Source: Pseudomonadota bacterium (lineage in GTDB: Bacteria > Pseudomonadota > Gammaproteobacteria > Burkholderiales > Burkholderiaceae_C). Taken from it: 64,000 nucleotides of DNA. The stretch spans positions 1 through 64,000 of the forward strand of contig JAKARB010000002.1 of the NCBI GenBank assembly GCA_021819435.1, in the 5' to 3' direction. Below, piece by piece: positions 58,101 through 64,000 of the stretch. Position 1 is the stretch's first letter. The number at the start of each line of letters is the position of its first letter. The notes under the pieces were generated by a model. That model was not told the origin of the DNA and ran no database searches. It worked only from the letters and a program-made list of their open reading frames with translations. Both the position numbers and the translations under genes were made by a program.

Positions 58101-60560
58101 GTGCAGCTTTTGCCTCACCCAGCCATGACAGGGATGACCTCTTCTCAGCAATCCTGGTCGACCCAATGGAAGACACGTGTCGAGCACTGGATGCTGGACG
58201 CCATGCCCGGCGAGTCCCTGGACGGACCCCTCGCCCGGTATTTCCGCGCCCGTCAGATCCTGGCCTTGCTCAACATCATGCCCTTCGTGTCGGTGGGCAA
58301 CGCCATCAACACCTTGGTCATCTGCGGCGTCTTTTGGGACTCTTTGCCCCATGTCTGGCTGATCGTCTGGGGGCTGACGGTCTCGCTGGCACTGCCGGTG
58401 GCCATCCTGTGGTGGCGCCAGCTCATCACCTCCGGGCACCGGCCGGTAGCGATGCCGGGTGCCACGCGCACGATCGTCGCCCACGTCATCGCTTTCGGCG
58501 CGCTGTGGTCGGTGATGCCCGCCATCGTTTTCCCACAGGCCGACCACGCCCAAGCCTTGCTGATCGCCACCGTGGTGGTCGGCATGATCTGCAGCGGTGC
58601 CTTCATGCTCAGCCCCACGGTGCTGGCCGCCTGGGCCTACGTGGCCACCCTGGGCGTGTGCAGCGTCATGGGCCTGCTCAGCTCCAGCTACGCCACCAGC
58701 GCTTCGCTGCTGTTGCTGCTGGTGGTCTACACCCTGGTGATGGGTGGGGTGGTTTTTGCCAACGCTCGCACCTTCATGAGCCGGCTGCGTGCCGACGCCG
58801 AAACCGACCGCCAGAAGCAGCTCATCGACCTGCTGCTGCGCGACTTCGAAGAGCACGCCTCCGACTGGTTGTGGGAAATTTCGGCCACGGGCCACCTGCG
58901 CCACGTCTCGGCGCGCCTGGCCGAATCCTTCGGCATGACGCAGCGGCAGTTGCAGCAGCAGCCCTTCCTGGAGTTGCTGGGCACCTTGCTACCGCCGCAC
59001 GATGCCGCCGCGCGGGAGTCCCTGGCCAGCCTGACCACCTCCATCCGCATGGGCCAGCCCTTTCGCGACCTGGAGCTGCCGGTGGCGGTGGGGCCTCACC
59101 TGCGCTGGTGGTCGTTGACGGCCAAACCCTTGTTCGATGAGCGGGGGCGGGCGGCTGGCTGGTGTGGCGTGGGCTCGGACATCACCCAAGCCCGCGAGGC
59201 CCGCGAGGAACTCGCCCGCCTGGCCAACCAGGATTCGCTCACTGGCCTGGCCAACCGCCACCGCTTCAGCACCGAATTGGAGCGTCTGGGCACGGCGCAG
59301 GGCGTGGCGCAGCGCCCCTGTGCGCTGCTGTTCATCGACCTGGACAACTTCAAGAACATCAACGACACCTTCGGCCACGGTGTGGGCGACCAGTTGCTGC
59401 GCAGGGTCAGTGCGCGCCTGAAGAGCTGCGTCGTCGACGGTGACCTGCTGGCTCGCCTAGGCGGCGACGAGTTCGCCCTGCTGACCTGGCGTTACGCCGA
59501 TGCGACCGAGGCCGCCGCCCTCGCCGAGCGCCTGTTGGTGCTGCTGGCCGAGCCCTACCAATGCGACAACGTGATGCTGGAGTCGCGCGCCAGCGTGGGC
59601 GTGGCACTGGCCCCGCGCGACGGGGCCGACCCGCAGTCGCTGCTGCAATGTGCCGACTTGGCTCTCTACGCCGCCAAGGCCGCCGGGCGCAACACCTACC
59701 GCTTCTTCGACCTGCCCATGGCCGAGTCCGCCCGCTCGCGGGTGCGGCTGCAACAGGAGCTCGGTCTGGCCCTGGCTGCCGAGCAATTCACCCTTTACTT
59801 TCAGCCCCAGTTGCACCTGCGCACGGGGGCCGTCATCGGTTTCGAGGCCCTGGTGCGCTGGCAGCACTCCGAACGTGGCCTCATCAGCCCCGGCGAGTTC
59901 ATCCCCGTTGCCGAGGAGACCGGCCAGATCGTCAACCTGGGCACCTGGGTGCTGCGCGAGGCCTGTCGCATCGCGACCCAGTGGCCAGGCGAGTTGCGCG
60001 TGGCCGTCAACCTGTCGGCGGTGCAGTTCCGCAGCTCGTCCCTCATCGACCTGGTCGACGAGGTGCTGCAGCACACCGGCCTCTCGCCCGAGCGGCTGGA
60101 GTTGGAGATCACCGAATCCGCCCTGATCGAGGACCACGATGGTGCCCAGGCCACCCTGGTGGCGCTGCGCAGCCGGGGCGTGCGGGTGGCGATGGACGAC
60201 TTCGGCACCGGCTACTCGTCGCTGGCCTACTTGCGGCGCTTCCCGCTGGACAAGCTCAAGATCGACGGCATGTTCGTGCGCTCGCTCGACAGCGACACCG
60301 ACGCGCAGGCCGTGGTCACCGCCATCATCAGCCTGGCGCGGGCCTTGCATCTGGATACCACCGCCGAAGGCATCGAAACCGAGGAGCAACTGGTCATGCT
60401 GCGCGCGCTCGGATGCGATGACATCCAGGGCTACCTGATCGCCCGCCCCATGCCGGCCACCTCGGTGGTTGAGTACCTGTCCCGCACACAGGGGGGGCGA
60501 GAGAAGGGAACCCGCAAGGCTGTCAGCGATCCATCAGGGGGCGGTGTCGCGGTGCGGTGA
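58101..60560 (+). CDS. Membrane c-di-GMP protein with PAS, GGDEF and EAL domains
   Basis: An 819-residue protein. Six hydrophobic segments fill the first 230 residues, followed by a PAS domain (SDWLWEISATGHLRHVS), a diguanylate cyclase with GGDEF intact (LARLGGDEFALL) and an EAL phosphodiesterase (FEALVRWQHSERGLISPGEF, DDFGTGYSSLAYLRRF, EGIET). Both active sites look complete. The next gene exports polysaccharide, so this protein may control exopolysaccharide through c-di-GMP. The start is uncertain: GTG at 58101 with GGAAG upstream, or ATG at 58125 or 58134. Confidence 0.88.
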   Translation: MQLLPHPAMTGMTSSQQSWSTQWKTRVEHWMLDAMPGESLDGPLARYFRARQILALLNIMPFVSVGNAINTLVICGVFWDSLPHVWLIVWGLTVSLALPVAILWWRQLITSGHRPVAMPGATRTIVAHVIAFGALWSVMPAIVFPQADHAQALLIATVVVGMICSGAFMLSPTVLAAWAYVATLGVCSVMGLLSSSYATSASLLLLLVVYTLVMGGVVFANARTFMSRLRADAETDRQKQLIDLLLRDFEEHASDWLWEISATGHLRHVSARLAESFGMTQRQLQQQPFLELLGTLLPPHDAAARESLASLTTSIRMGQPFRDLELPVAVGPHLRWWSLTAKPLFDERGRAAGWCGVGSDITQAREAREELARLANQDSLTGLANRHRFSTELERLGTAQGVAQRPCALLFIDLDNFKNINDTFGHGVGDQLLRRVSARLKSCVVDGDLLARLGGDEFALLTWRYADATEAAALAERLLVLLAEPYQCDNVMLESRASVGVALAPRDGADPQSLLQCADLALYAAKAAGRNTYRFFDLPMAESARSRVRLQQELGLALAAEQFTLYFQPQLHLRTGAVIGFEALVRWQHSERGLISPGEFIPVAEETGQIVNLGTWVLREACRIATQWPGELRVAVNLSAVQFRSSSLIDLVDEVLQHTGLSPERLELEITESALIEDHDGAQATLVALRSRGVRVAMDDFGTGYSSLAYLRRFPLDKLKIDGMFVRSLDSDTDAQAVVTAIISLARALHLDTTAEGIETEEQLVMLRALGCDDIQGYLIARPMPATSVVEYLSRTQGGREKGTRKAVSDPSGGGVAVR

Positions 60561-60630
60561 TACATTGGCCCCGCTGGCGACCCCTGGGGGGCGCTGGCCT
60601 CCAGGATTTTTCAAGACAAGGATCGTGCAC

Positions 60631-61497
60631 ATGAAATGGATGCGTGACATGCTCAAGTGGTTGATGGTCGCCCTGATGGCGCAGGCCGGCGCGGGGGCGT
60701 TTGCCCAGGCCGCGCAGCCTCCCCAGGCGCCTCAGCAAGCTCCTGCGGCCGCCCCGCAGGGCACCAAGGACTATGTGCTGGGTCCGGGCGATTCCATCCG
60801 CGTCACCGTCTACCAAAACGTCGACCTGACGCTCGAAACCCGCATCAACGAGAACGGCACGATCTCCTATCCGCTGCTGGGCCAGGTCAAGCTGGGCGGG
60901 CTCAGCATCAACGATGCCGAGCGGGCCATCGCCAATGGCTTGAAAGAAGGCAACTTCATCAAGCAGCCCCAGGTGTCCATCCTGCTGATGACGGCTGCGG
61001 CCAACCAGGTGTCCGTGCTCGGCATGGTCAACAAGCCTGGCCGCTACCCGGTGATCGCCGCGAGCAACAAGCTCAGCGAAATCATGGCCATGGCCGGCGG
61101 CATCATCCCCGGCACGGGCTCTGACATCGTGGTGGTGTCGGGCACGCGTGACGGCCAGCCCTTCCGCAAGGAAATCGATTTCACCAAGGTGTTCGCTTCT
61201 TCGGGGTCCGAGCCGGATTTCGAGTTGCGCAATGGCGACACCATCTGGGTGGATCGTGCCCCGCAGGTCTACATGTACGGCGAAGTGCAGCGCCCGGGTG
61301 CCCAGGTGCTGATGCGTGGCACCACGGTGCTGCAAGCCCTGGCGAACGCCGGCGGCCTGACCCTGCGTGGCACGCAGCGCGGCATCAAGGTGCACCGCCG
61401 CGACGAGGCCACGGGCCAGGTCAAGGTCATTGAGCCCGGCTTGAATGACATCCTCATGCCCAACGACATCATCTACGTCAAGGAAAGCCTGTTCTGA
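60631..61497 (+). CDS. Polysaccharide export protein (Wza/EpsE-like)
   Basis: A 288-residue periplasmic/outer-membrane polysaccharide export protein. A signal peptide ends near AGAFAQA; no lipobox Cys is seen, unlike Wza. The export domain has DYVLGPGDSIRVTVYQNVDL and ENGTISYPLLGQVKLGGLS, followed by two SLBB-type repeats (VSVLGMVNKPGRYPV, VYMYGEVQRPGAQVL). AAGGA precedes the ATG. No other capsule gene is in the window. A terminator follows directly. Confidence 0.9.
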   Translation: MKWMRDMLKWLMVALMAQAGAGAFAQAAQPPQAPQQAPAAAPQGTKDYVLGPGDSIRVTVYQNVDLTLETRINENGTISYPLLGQVKLGGLSINDAERAIANGLKEGNFIKQPQVSILLMTAAANQVSVLGMVNKPGRYPVIAASNKLSEIMAMAGGIIPGTGSDIVVVSGTRDGQPFRKEIDFTKVFASSGSEPDFELRNGDTIWVDRAPQVYMYGEVQRPGAQVLMRGTTVLQALANAGGLTLRGTQRGIKVHRRDEATGQVKVIEPGLNDILMPNDIIYVKESLF

Positions 61498-61521
61498 TCT
61501 GAAGACAGCTTTGCTGGATGT

Positions 61522-61550
61522 GAGAGGGCCCTTCGGGGCCCTTTCTCTTT
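61522..61550 (+). terminator. Terminator after the polysaccharide export gene
   Basis: AGGGCCC-TTCG-GGGCCCT, a stable 7-bp stem capped by a TTCG tetraloop, followed by a T-rich tail TTCTCTTT. It lies about 25 bp past the stop codon. Confidence 0.8.
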
Positions 61551-61601
61551 GGCGGCGGGCTTGTGTTGCGGGGTTTGAGGTGGTTTGCCACGGGTGAGCG
61601 A

Positions 61602-61750
61602 CGGTCAGGGGGCGAGGGGCGCCTGCGCCGGCCCTGCGCGGGGCGCCACCGAGCTTGGTCACCATCACCCCTTGAACACGAGCCTGGCTGTTGTCGAGCC
61701 ATGACACCGCACATGTCGGGCCGGCGCAGGCACCCCTCGCCCCCTGACCG
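61602..61750 (+). repeat. Structured hairpin element, copy A
   Basis: A 149-bp element bounded by 33-bp inverted ends (61602-61634 and 61718-61750) that pair at 32 of 33 positions. The apical part holds conserved blocks TGCGCGGGGCGCCACCGAGC, TCACCCCTTGAACAC and CCATGACACCGCACATGTC. These recur in copy B in opposite orientation, whose stem sequence differs but still self-pairs. No gene is seen. Function unknown; a structured RNA or a small mobile palindromic element are the main options. Confidence 0.8.
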
Positions 61751-61774
61751 CGATACAGCGTGGCAGGCGGAGAA

Positions 61775-61809
61775 GGAAGAAGGGCGACGCTTTGCGTCGC
61801 CCTTCTTCC
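61775..61809. repeat. 16-bp perfect hairpin between the twin elements
   Basis: GGAAGAAGGGCGACGC-TTT-GCGTCGCCCTTCTTCC. It lies midway between copy A and copy B of the twin elements. It resembles a bidirectional terminator but has no T-run on either side. Confidence 0.8.
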
Positions 61810-61839
61810 GCCAACACCGCCGTGTGCGCGGGTGGTTCG

Positions 61840-61989
61840 GGTCCGGTGGGTGGGGTGGGTGTGAGCCGGCCCGACATGTGCGGTGTCATGGCTCGGCAAC
61901 CACTTGGTCGGTGTTCAAGGGGTGAAGGCTCAACCAGCTCGGTGGCGCCCCGCGCAGGGCCGGATCACACCCACCCCACCCATCGGACC
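61840..61989 (-). repeat. Structured hairpin element, copy B (inverted)
   Basis: A 150-bp element with 33-bp inverted ends (61840-61872 and 61957-61989) pairing at 31 of 33 positions, one of the two exceptions being a G-T wobble. Read on the minus strand, its apical core matches copy A in the outer blocks while the central 20-25 bases differ. The stem is built on GTGGGTGGGGTGGGTG instead of the GGGGGCGAGGGG of copy A. It lies 33 bp from the rsmB stop codon. Confidence 0.8.
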
Positions 61990-62022
61990 GTGCATCAGCC
62001 GGCGCACGCAAAACCCCGACCA

Positions 62023-63288
62023 TCAATCCTTCTTCTGCCAAACCGCCGCAAAGAACCCATCGGTCGAGTGCTTGTGCGGCCACAGGCGCAGGTAGCCGGC
62101 AGGTGTCACCAGGTCGGCGGCGTTTTCCACACCGGCCGAGCTCAGGGCTTCTGCGGCGTTCAGGGGCACGAAGTCGGTGTGCGCTGCGGTGAACGCATCG
62201 GCGATGCCTTCGTTCTCATCTGGGATCACGCTGCAGGTGGCGTAGACCAGGCGGCCACCCGGCTTGAGCAGGCGGGCCGCGCTGTCCAGGATGGCGGTCT
62301 GCTTGACCTTGAGCTCTTCCAGCGCCTTCGGAGACTGGCGCCACTTCAGGTCGGGGTTGCGACGCAGCGTGCCCAGGCCGGAGCAGGGCGCGTCCACCAG
62401 CACGCGGTCGATCTTGCCGCGCAGGCGCTTGATGCGGTCGTCGTTTTCGTGGGCGATCTGCGTGGCGTACACGTTCGAGAGCCCGCTGCGCGCCAGACGC
62501 GGCTTGAGGTTGTCGAGCCGATGCGCCGACACGTCGAAGGCGTACAGGCGGCCGGTGTTGCGCATCAGCGCGCCCAGGGCCAGGGTCTTGCCGCCGGCGC
62601 CGGCGCAGAAGTCCACCACCATCTCGCCCCGCTTCGGGGCAGTCAGCAGCGACAGCAACTGGCTGCCCTCGTCCTGCACTTCCACGTGGCCTTCGGTGTA
62701 GATCGGCATCTTCTGCAAGGCCGGCTTGCCGGGGATGCGGATGCCGATGATGGAGAAAGGCGTGGGCGTGGCTTCGATTTGTGCGGCGGCCAGCGCTTCG
62801 AGCACGGCCTCGCGCTTGGCCTTCTGCGTGTTCACGCGCAGGTCGAGCGGGGCCGAGGCCGAGAAGGTTTCGACCAGGGCCCAGAAGCCTTCGTCGTCGA
62901 GCTGCTCGCGCAGGCGGTTGGCCAGCCAGTCGGGCAGGTTGTGGCGCAGCTTGTCTTGCAGCTGGGTGCGGTCGATGGTGGCGGTGCGCTCCAGCCAGGT
63001 CAGTTCATCGGGCGTGGCGCCGTTCTTGAGCACGTGGGGCTGGCCTTGCCAGGCCAGCAGCGCCAGGCGGCGTTCTTGCGGGCCGTGGCCCGATTGCGCA
63101 AGGTGGGCCCACAGCAGGCGCTGGCGCAGCACGGCGTAGGCCGTTTCGGCCAGGGCGTGGCGCTCGCGCTGGCCCAGGGCCTTGTGCTTGCGGAAGAAGT
63201 AAGAAACGATGCTGTCGGCGGGGGCGTCGAGCTTGAGCACCTCACGGACGAGCTGGGTCGCGAGGTCGAGGAGCGCTTTCGGATGCAT
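62023..63288 (-). CDS. rsmB: 16S rRNA (cytosine-5)-methyltransferase RsmB-like
   Basis: A 421-residue RNA m5C methyltransferase of the NOL1/NOP2/Sun family. An N-terminal NusB-like region is followed by VQDEGSQLLSLLTAPKRGEMVVDFCAGAGGKTLALG (SAM site), VDAPCSGLGTLRRNPDLKWR and the catalytic cysteine in VYATCSV. It methylates C967 of 16S rRNA in E. coli. The start overlaps the end of the upstream gene by 47 bp. Confidence 0.88.
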   Translation of the reverse strand: MHPKALLDLATQLVREVLKLDAPADSIVSYFFRKHKALGQRERHALAETAYAVLRQRLLWAHLAQSGHGPQERRLALLAWQGQPHVLKNGATPDELTWLERTATIDRTQLQDKLRHNLPDWLANRLREQLDDEGFWALVETFSASAPLDLRVNTQKAKREAVLEALAAAQIEATPTPFSIIGIRIPGKPALQKMPIYTEGHVEVQDEGSQLLSLLTAPKRGEMVVDFCAGAGGKTLALGALMRNTGRLYAFDVSAHRLDNLKPRLARSGLSNVYATQIAHENDDRIKRLRGKIDRVLVDAPCSGLGTLRRNPDLKWRQSPKALEELKVKQTAILDSAARLLKPGGRLVYATCSVIPDENEGIADAFTAAHTDFVPLNAAEALSSAGVENAADLVTPAGYLRLWPHKHSTDGFFAAVWQKKD

Positions 63289-64000
63289 GGGCGCGATTAT
63301 CCGCTGCTTGCGCCTTGGGCAGTGGCGGACGCTCCCATTCCGGCGGACCCCAGACGTGTTTGAGTCGCATGGCCAGCGGGCCGGGCCGCATCACGTCACG
63401 CAGCATGGCCGCCCACTCGTGCAGCGTCAGCCACAAGGGGTTGTGTGTGTGTACCTGGCGCACCAGGCCATAGTCCACCGCTTCTTTCTCGGCCACGAAG
63501 GTGCCGAACAACCGGTCGAACACGATCAGCGTGCCGCCGTAGTTCTTGTCGATGTAGCGCGCGTTGCGGCCGTGGTGGGCGCGGTGGTGCGAAGGGGTGT
63601 TGAAGACCAGCTCGATCAGCGGGTGCAGCTTGCCCACCCACTGCGTGTGCACGAAGAACTGGTAGGCCAGGTTGATCGACAGCGCCAGCAGCACCGCCCG
63701 GGGCTCGAAGCCGATCCACACCATGGGCAGGTAAAACAGCCAGTTGCCGGCGAAGCTGTAGAGCCAGCTCTGGCGCATGGCGGTGGTGAAGTTCATGTGC
63801 TCCGAGCCGTGGTGCACCACATGCGCGCACCAGAACCAGCGGATGCGGTGGCTGGCGCGGTGGAACCAGTAGTAGCAGAACTCCACGCCCAGGTAGAGTG
63901 CCGCGAAGCTCGCTGGCGTCAGCTCGATGGTGGCCAGCCGGTGGTGTTCGTGCACCCAGCCCATGGCCGGCAGCACGAAGGCCAGCACGAGCACCACGTC
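63242..64000 (-). CDS. Sterol desaturase / fatty acid hydroxylase family protein (N terminus beyond the right edge)
   Basis: At least 251 residues of a membrane diiron hydroxylase. The His motifs HRASH, HVVHHGSEHMN and HHRAHHGRN are intact. The frame stays open to the window edge and the family usually has another 50-70 N-terminal residues, so the gene is cut. Members hydroxylate or desaturate lipids. Its 3' end overlaps rsmB by 47 bp in a different frame on the same strand. Confidence 0.85.
   Translation of the reverse strand, partial: DVVLVLAFVLPAMGWVHEHHRLATIELTPASFAALYLGVEFCYYWFHRASHRIRWFWCAHVVHHGSEHMNFTTAMRQSWLYSFAGNWLFYLPMVWIGFEPRAVLLALSINLAYQFFVHTQWVGKLHPLIELVFNTPSHHRAHHGRNARYIDKNYGGTLIVFDRLFGTFVAEKEAVDYGLVRQVHTHNPLWLTLHEWAAMLRDVMRPGPLAMRLKHVWGPPEWERPPLPKAQAADNRAHASESAPRPRDPARP

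What the first reader, a model, noticed from the sequence alone, without database searches (positions are those of the whole stretch)
61602..61989. Twin 150-bp hairpin elements with different but self-pairing stems
Two elements lie in inverted orientation around a 16-bp perfect hairpin. Each has 33-bp inverted ends that pair almost perfectly (32 of 33 and 31 of 33), yet the stem sequences of the two copies differ at many positions. Both ends of each copy changed together, which is covariation, the mark of selection or mechanism acting on pairing. The apical cores are conserved in blocks with a variable middle. Neither copy codes for protein. This could be an undescribed structured RNA, a palindromic transposon-like element, or a protein-binding cruciform.
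Basis: seen in the sequence. Interest (0 to 1): 0.78.

Follow-up and report, generated by a model that had tools for sequence, protein, structure and literature searches.

The report
Mobile twin-hairpin element in Burkholderiales
This is one copy of an apparently undescribed, non-coding, probably mobile DNA element of environmental bacteria, built from two back-to-back hairpins whose stems keep changing in step so that one particular strand can still fold.

Summary
The ~430-bp unit (window ~61586-62016) has two long hairpins with related ~84-nt apical cores, inverted around a short central hairpin. It is a dispersed repeat: hits in 18 of 42 genomes of its genus (probably Aquabacterium), and in 21 of 150 genomes (20 of 141 genera) of its family. 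Stem covariation is real: in 95 distinct halves 96.8% of cells pair and 23 of 32 pairs change on both sides; 12 pairs pass a tree-aware null, all in the stem. Non-Watson-Crick cells are strand-biased (distinct G.U events 122, A.C 15), so one strand of each half is the selected fold; this argues against a cruciform or palindrome correction. In 75 of 75 twins examined these strands point outward. In a second genus, copies at unrelated loci are up to 100% identical. Of 11 loci compared with a sibling species, 5 are empty there, 4 hold a different palindromic element with similar ends, 2 were not opened. Best reading: a non-autonomous, REPIN/MITE-like mobile element acting through a folded RNA or single-stranded DNA. 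It is not a REP/RAYT member: units too large, no GTAG tag, no Y1 transposase in eight copy-bearing genomes tested. No Rfam match. Mobiliser unknown.

The parts
61586..62016 (.). whole twin-hairpin element (outer limits approximate)
   Evidence: extent of similarity among 23 aligned copies (window plus 22) of four genomes; own-genome and relative matches
61586..61766 (-). left half-element (A type); selected folding strand is the - strand
   Evidence: covariance-model hit 61599-61754 on the - strand, 149.5 bits against 39 bits on the other strand (the window was among the model's sequences); fold z -9.3; strand-biased mismatches of the family
61602..61634 (.). left stem, outer arm
61718..61750 (.). 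left stem, inner arm
61635..61717 (-). left apical core: conserved blocks, with a hypervariable stretch of nearly fixed length at about 61654-61665
   Evidence: core lists and alignments; per-column variability
61775..61809 (.). central hairpin (16 bp, 3-nt loop); among 23 aligned copies GGCGACGC is kept in 23 and GCGTCGCC in 22, while the outer arm varies with pairing kept
61836..61993 (+). right half-element (B type); selected folding strand is the + strand
   Evidence: covariance-model hit 61836-61992 on the + strand, 153.7 bits against 45.3 on the other strand (the window was among the model's sequences)
61840..61872 (.). right stem, inner arm
61957..61989 (.). right stem, outer arm
61873..61956 (+). 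right apical core; hypervariable stretch at about 61926-61937

Best explanation
The feature is one copy of a non-autonomous mobile element found in the bacterial family that includes Aquabacterium. Shown: it is dispersed, intergenic, non-coding and multi-copy. Each half folds on one fixed strand into a stem of about 24-35 bp with a conserved apical core. The two folding strands point outward in every twin examined. Pairing is conserved while the sequence drifts. Near-identical copies sit at unrelated loci of one genome, and between sibling species the same intergenic site can hold this element, nothing, or a different palindromic element with similar ends. Inferred: the folded single strand (RNA, or ssDNA as in IS200/IS605-type systems) is what an unknown mobilising machinery recognises in trans. 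Because the unit is a near-symmetric inverted pair, a transcript or exposed strand entering from either side carries one correctly folded half, which suits sites behind genes in either direction, above all between convergent genes. The outer ends are the units of exchange, shared with at least one other palindromic family.
For: Copies: 26 BLAST pieces in the own genome; 18 of 61 genomes by DNA, own included; 18 of 42 genus genomes and 21 of 150 family genomes in 20 of 141 genera by covariance model, own included. Covariation: 95 distinct halves, 96.8% of cells paired against 71.9% shuffled and 40-44% when slid; 670 double-changed cells against 206 shuffled; 12 pairs above the maximum of 20 tree-based null runs, all 12 in the stem. 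Strand selection: (130 halves, 20 genomes; distinct events G.U 122 / A.C 15, G.A 90 / C.T 15; no C>T excess in loop columns); same direction (56 halves picked by sequence pattern, no model; A.C 94 against G.U 16 on the opposite strand). Orientation: 56 of 56 twins plus 19 of 19. Mobility: identity of 100% over 448 bp and 99% over 453 bp between copies at unrelated loci of G305. Sibling comparison G305/G443: of 11 loci, 5 empty in the other species, 4 occupied there by another palindromic family, with the shared flank running into the common end motif on 6 of 8 sides, 2 not opened. At the L171 locus three more relatives have only 33-35 bp between the aligned gene stretches. Placement: G305 13 convergent, 6 tandem, 0 divergent of 19; window baseline 9 convergent of 51 gene pairs.
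Against: No mobilising gene was found, and no target-site duplication could be read. Filled and empty sites also differ in roughly 10-80 nt beyond the recognised ends, so deletion rather than insertion is not excluded for any one site. Eight places are shared among four Aquabacterium genomes (the window's place by its right-hand gene), and three more between G305 and G443. Between orthologues at seven of those places 34 of 98 differing stem cells are compensated (pairwise counts, not independent), which could mean selection in place, i.e. a host function, although gene conversion between copies would give the same. The outer ends did not pair better within a copy than between copies (13 loci, p 0.27). 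The same site holding different elements in siblings could be exchange by ordinary homologous recombination in shared ends rather than transposition. RNA versus ssDNA is undecided.
Confidence: 0.6

Rival explanations
1. Host-serving cis RNA at gene 3' ends (transcript end protection, processing or bidirectional termination) that has been multiplied by duplication and gene conversion; the folded transcript is the product of selection.
For: Strand-specific pairing with G.U wobble; preference for convergent or downstream positions; eight places shared between Aquabacterium genomes, with compensated changes in the seven compared.
Against: In the window the left gene has its own terminator-like hairpin before the element (61526-61541 with a T-rich tail; not flagged by the scan). 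Two deleted derivatives at shared places have badly paired stems (L064 and L074, scores 22 and 18 against a median of 46). Presence varies between sibling species, and 24 of 42 genomes of the genus gave no hit.
Confidence: 0.22
2. No selection on pairing: long inverted repeats are kept alike by template-switch (quasipalindrome) correction or by gene conversion among copies, and both arms change together for that reason.
For: Such correction also yields paired changes (recalled); copies are similar enough for conversion (core divergence 14% between orthologues, 16% between paralogues).
Against: These processes are blind to which strand reads G.T and which A.C, yet the bias is 122 to 15 distinct events, with no C>T excess in the loop. 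The conserved cores, with 3 invariant pairs and many fixed bases, are not explained.
Confidence: 0.08
3. Double-stranded protein-binding site or cruciform for chromosome organisation.
For: Conserved core blocks with a nearly fixed-length variable stretch of about 10 nt; dispersed intergenic sites.
Against: Strand asymmetry of stem mismatches; patchy presence among relatives.
Confidence: 0.05
4. Member of the REP/REPIN system mobilised by a RAYT (Y1) transposase.
For: Same plan: two palindromic units inverted around a spacer, intergenic, 3'-end placement (passages).
Against: PF01797 not found in G000, G001, G017, G033, G022, G026, G305 and G443, all of which carry copies; units and stems far larger; GTAG in 3 of 130 halves. 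It is present in some other genomes with few or no copies.
Confidence: 0.05

Closest known systems
REPINs / dimeric REP elements (BIMEs) with RAYT transposases
   Same: two inverted palindromic units with a spacer, compensatory stem changes, intergenic, often at 3' ends and between convergent genes, heterodimers with different stems, G.T pairs in stems, strand-specific recognition (passages of PMC3116915, PMC3733652, PMC8266576)
   Different: unit ~155 nt against 20-60; stem about 24-35 bp against 5-13; conserved ~84-nt apical core; no GTAG tag; no Y1 transposase in the eight copy-bearing genomes named in the membership table; about ten to thirty halves per genome in the richest genomes seen, as far as capped searches show
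CIR (Caulobacter CerM-associated intergenic repeats)
   Same: two long stem-loop arms joined by a linker, intergenic, non-coding (passages of PMC2229807)
   Different: no regular GANTC in the loop (3 of 35 rows at one place, 5 of 35 anywhere in the core); other lineage; arms here are inverted copies of one unit; CIR sequences were not compared directly
Bacterial MITEs (Correia/NEMIS, ERIC, RUP, YPAL)
   Same: non-autonomous, intergenic, palindromic, filled and empty sites (passages of PMC2229807)
   Different: about 430-460 bp (perhaps ~570 with outer ends in G305, by eye) against ~100-200; no target duplication read; terminal repeats weak; two internal hairpins under strand-specific selection
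Structured RNA families of Rfam
   Same: conserved core, covarying stem, G.U tolerance
   Different: nothing reached its gathering score or E 0.03 in window 60000-63500 or in six related loci; the Burkholderiales-1 motif, named in PMC2864571 without an Rfam accession (passage), could not be compared

Membership tests
REP/REPIN-RAYT | inverted doublet of palindromic units with spacer | tested here: met
   75 of 75 twins in one arrangement (56, 19)
REP/REPIN-RAYT | unit of 20-60 bp, stem 5-13 bp | tested here: not met
   model of the half-element 155-156 positions; mean paired arm 35 nt
REP/REPIN-RAYT | GTAG or CGTC tag at the foot of the unit | tested here: not met
   GTAG in 3 and CGTC in 26 of 130 halves within 37 nt at the 5' foot; eight G+C-rich 4-mers occur in 69-86
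REP/REPIN-RAYT | RAYT (Y1, PF01797) in the genome | tested here: not met
   absent in G000, G001, G017, G033, G022, G026, G011, G305 and G443; present in G002, G003, G005, G019, G028, G062, which carry few copies, and in G013, G031, G442; G447, G513, G540 not tested
MITE | non-coding, dispersed, empty sites in relatives | tested here: met
   5 of 11 sibling comparisons empty, 4 hold another element, 2 not opened
MITE | terminal inverted repeats | tested here: inconclusive
   G305 ends share a degenerate motif with each other and with a second family, but own-copy ends pair no better than cross-copy ends
MITE | target-site duplication | tested here: inconclusive
   none readable in five filled/empty comparisons; flanks differ by roughly 10-80 nt
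MITE | autonomous partner with transposase and the same ends | tested here: inconclusive
   end search in two genomes gave known copies, remnants, the second palindromic family and short weak hits, of which only some were opened; 26 genes flanking 14 G305 loci: no transposase, integrase or reverse transcriptase family, 7 without any family
CIR | two arms plus linker | tested here: met
CIR | GANTC in a terminal loop | tested here: not met
   3 of 35 rows at the likely place, 5 of 35 anywhere in the core
Rfam RNA family | score above a curated threshold | tested here: not met
   (window 60000-63500 and six loci)
expressed structured RNA | transcript detected | not testable with these tools
   no RNA-seq held; no promoter-like site inside the element in a simple scan

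The most novel reading that the evidence does not exclude
A system of interchangeable palindromic cassettes: the element's mobility determinant is a pair of divergently oriented structured RNAs (or strand-specific ssDNA folds) with a conserved ~84-nt core of a new fold, and an unknown enzyme acting on ends shared with other palindromic families inserts and swaps them at the same intergenic sites: a mode of non-autonomous mobility outside RAYT/HUH and classical DDE-MITE systems.
Probability: 0.2. Interest if true: 0.85.

Novelty: new variant of a known kind. Interest (0 to 1): 0.65.

Why it matters
Bacterial palindromic repeats have long been argued over: selfish DNA, RNA signals or chromosome sites. 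Here a simple comparative test (which strand keeps G.U) says that a fixed single strand is what selection sees, in a family with visible recent gain, loss and exchange between sibling species, a constant head-to-head architecture, and no REP transposase in the copy-bearing genomes tested that are richest among those checked. That makes the mobiliser and the RNA-or-ssDNA question directly testable, and gives annotators a covariance model for a family seen in about one in seven sampled genera of its bacterial family.

Tried and rejected
Guide hypothesis (the hypervariable ~10-nt loop matches the insertion flanks, as in bridge-RNA systems): 128 loops, own flanks 9.51 against 9.40 matches for other loci, p 0.16. 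No support.

RAYT as driver: PF01797 search in 15 and 10 genomes. Rejected for G000, G001, G017, G033, G022, G026, G305 and G443; G447, G513 and G540 were not tested.

Autonomous version: the apparent inward pair in G447 proved to be a twin and a half-element cut by the contig end, either side of a chemoreceptor gene (PF00015); two further twins flank a mechanosensitive-channel gene (PF00924). Two ORFs in the 492-nt gap between halves in G566 match no Pfam family. Of genes flanking G305 copies, 26 from 14 of 19 loci were scanned; none is a transposase.

Extra helices inside the core: no core pair passed the tree-aware test (the next pairs below the cut are stem pairs or stacked on the stem). 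Small hairpins seen by eye were dropped.

Copy-specific outer palindromes: not supported (13 loci, p 0.27 and 0.18).

Promoter and terminator scan: nothing inside the element; the central hairpin was not flagged as an intrinsic terminator.

Results that lean: the alignments behind searches were fitted to the model's structure; one search was not and points the same way; one search used a strand-symmetric aligner on halves found by the model. Of 159 model hits 150 were aligned and 20 antisense rows dropped before the counts, 7 of the 49 hits were left out as antisense. The end alignment lines up only 4 of its 7 ends; one search is the better test. Orthologous loci are counted more than once. 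The G305 background (4 convergent of 55) leaves out the element gaps and so understates convergence; the window's 9 of 51 is the fairer figure. The order-wide search (2 of 399, own included) scored 7 candidates per genome and the family search 20 per genome, saturated in G305, G447 and G540, so both are lower bounds.

Full report
What is there. One search confirms the two 33-nt stems (32 and 31 of 33 pairs) and the 16-bp central hairpin at the stated coordinates. The unit lies between convergent genes, a polysaccharide-export gene ending at 61497 and an RsmB/F methyltransferase gene ending at 62023. Single-strand folds are far better than shuffles. Aligning the window with 22 copies from four genomes shows the unit is about 430 bp, that the stems continue outward past an internal loop, and that the two halves are two long-separated versions of one hairpin (A and B), each recognisable from copy to copy.

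Where else it is. The window's genome gives 26 matching pieces, including several whole twins, pieces cut by contig ends and internally deleted derivatives. Of 61 genomes searched by DNA, own included, 18 match. A covariance model of the half-element, built from 35 halves, finds it in 18 of 42 genomes of the genus and in 2 of 399 genomes of the order, own included (7 candidates scored per genome). The other one, G305, is a one-contig genome of another genus with 33 half-element hits. A second model finds it in 21 of 150 genomes, 20 of 141 genera, of the family (20 candidates scored per genome, saturated in G305, G447 and G540).

Covariation. On 95 distinct halves 96.8% of cells pair, against 71.9% after shuffling and 40-44% when the partner is slid; 23 of 32 pairs change on both sides somewhere, and 670 cells are double-changed against 206 expected. 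Because related copies inflate such counts, I simulated each column on the tree of 125 distinct sequences. Twelve pairs exceed the maximum of 20 null runs, and all twelve are stem pairs. No pair inside the core passes. The core is kept by sequence, apart from a hypervariable stretch of about 10 nt whose length hardly changes; that stretch does not match the insertion flanks.

Which molecule is selected. If the duplex, a cruciform or template-switch correction were responsible, G.T and A.C mismatches would be equally common when one strand is read. They are not. With a strand-symmetric aligner and 56 halves found by sequence pattern, the strand first read gives 94 A.C and 16 G.U cells. On 130 model-found halves from 20 genomes the opposite strand gives 122 distinct G.U against 15 A.C events, and 90 G.A against 15 C.T. 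Loop columns show no C>T excess (10 columns C>T, 21 G>A), so a mutation bias of that strand is not the reason. The A.C cells that do occur are mostly in G305 (37 of 55). One fixed strand of each half is therefore the folding molecule under selection. RNA is the simplest reading, but ssDNA, as in IS200/IS605 and REP systems (PMC8266576, passages), is not excluded.

Architecture. In every locus with two halves the selected strands point outward: 56 of 56 (18 further loci had one half) and 19 of 19 in further genera. A strand entering from either side thus always carries one correctly folded half and one antisense half. Placement fits: of 40 loci in seven genomes of the genus, 20 are convergent, 13 tandem, 4 divergent (all one orthologous place) and 3 at contig ends (orthologous loci counted each time). 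In G305 it is 13 convergent, 6 tandem, 0 divergent. In the window 9 of 51 neighbouring gene pairs are convergent. Gene calls are from my own script.

Gain, loss and exchange. In G305 elements are 100% identical over 448 bp and 99% over 453 bp at unrelated loci. Three places are occupied in both G305 and the sibling species G443, some by derivatives. Of eleven other loci compared, ten through joined flanks and L171, five are empty in the other species (L169, L182, L200, L202, L204), four hold no twin half there but a second palindromic family (L171, L173, L176, L201; 89-94% over the longer pieces to the copy in L268), and two (L177, L178) were not opened. At these four places the flank shared by the siblings runs into the common end motif GCTTGCGGCCC-like on 5 of 8 sides and up to 61-95 nt short of the half-element on the other three (on one of these three the motif still follows in the second family only). 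At the L171 locus three more relatives have 33-35 bp between the aligned gene stretches. Insertion ends are not sharp: filled sites also differ by roughly 10-80 nt outside the recognised ends, and no target duplication could be read. No transposase, integrase or reverse transcriptase family was seen in 26 genes flanking 14 of the 19 G305 loci, 7 of which match no Pfam family. The REP-type Y1 transposase is missing from G000, G001, G017, G033, G022, G026, G305 and G443; other copy-rich genomes were not checked. Note: the For line says 6 of 8 sides; that counts the motif being present in either sibling at the junction, 5 of 8 being joins within it in both.

Against this reading. Eight places are shared among four Aquabacterium genomes (the window's place by its right-hand gene). 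Between orthologues at seven of them 34 of 98 differing stem cells are compensated, 32 remain paired through one change and 32 are broken (pairwise counts). That is compatible with selection in place or with conversion among copies. Two deleted derivatives at shared places have badly paired stems, so pairing is not required everywhere. A host function at gene 3' ends remains the main rival, and ordinary recombination in shared ends could explain the exchanged sites.

Known kinds. The plan is that of a dimeric REP or REPIN (passages of PMC3116915, PMC3733652) or of the two-armed CIR repeats (passage of PMC2229807), but unit size, stem length, tag and transposase fail the REP definition, and GANTC is not regular. 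Rfam gives nothing above threshold. Searches for a prior description showed none that I recognised from titles and abstract starts; only open-licence PMC papers are covered, and the Burkholderiales-1 motif could not be compared. I therefore call it a new variant of a known kind, with a possible new mechanism.

Noticed in passing
L268, L269, L198 (reverse strand), L217, L218, L219: A second long palindromic non-coding family in G443/G305 with a different interior but ends resembling those of the twin element; at four places the two siblings hold different families at the same site.
   Followed up: partly
   Followed up: partly
L042, L048: The exact 19-nt core pattern also occurs once each in a record labelled Acetobacteraceae MAG and one labelled Mycolicibacter heraklionensis; chance, contamination or transfer was not checked.
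   Followed up: no
L064, L074, L075, L082, L088: Internally deleted derivatives joining the A arm to the B arm or losing the core, at places where relatives keep whole twins; suggests recombination within the palindrome.
   Followed up: partly
window 61526-61549: G+C-rich hairpin with T-rich tail just after the polysaccharide-export gene, looks like that gene's own terminator outside the element (sequence; not flagged).
   Followed up: no
L016, L021, L022, L033: Single half-element with a nearly perfect but quite different stem in four genomes of the genus, at what looks like one shared place, flanked by terminator-like hairpins of both convergent genes (by eye).
   Followed up: no
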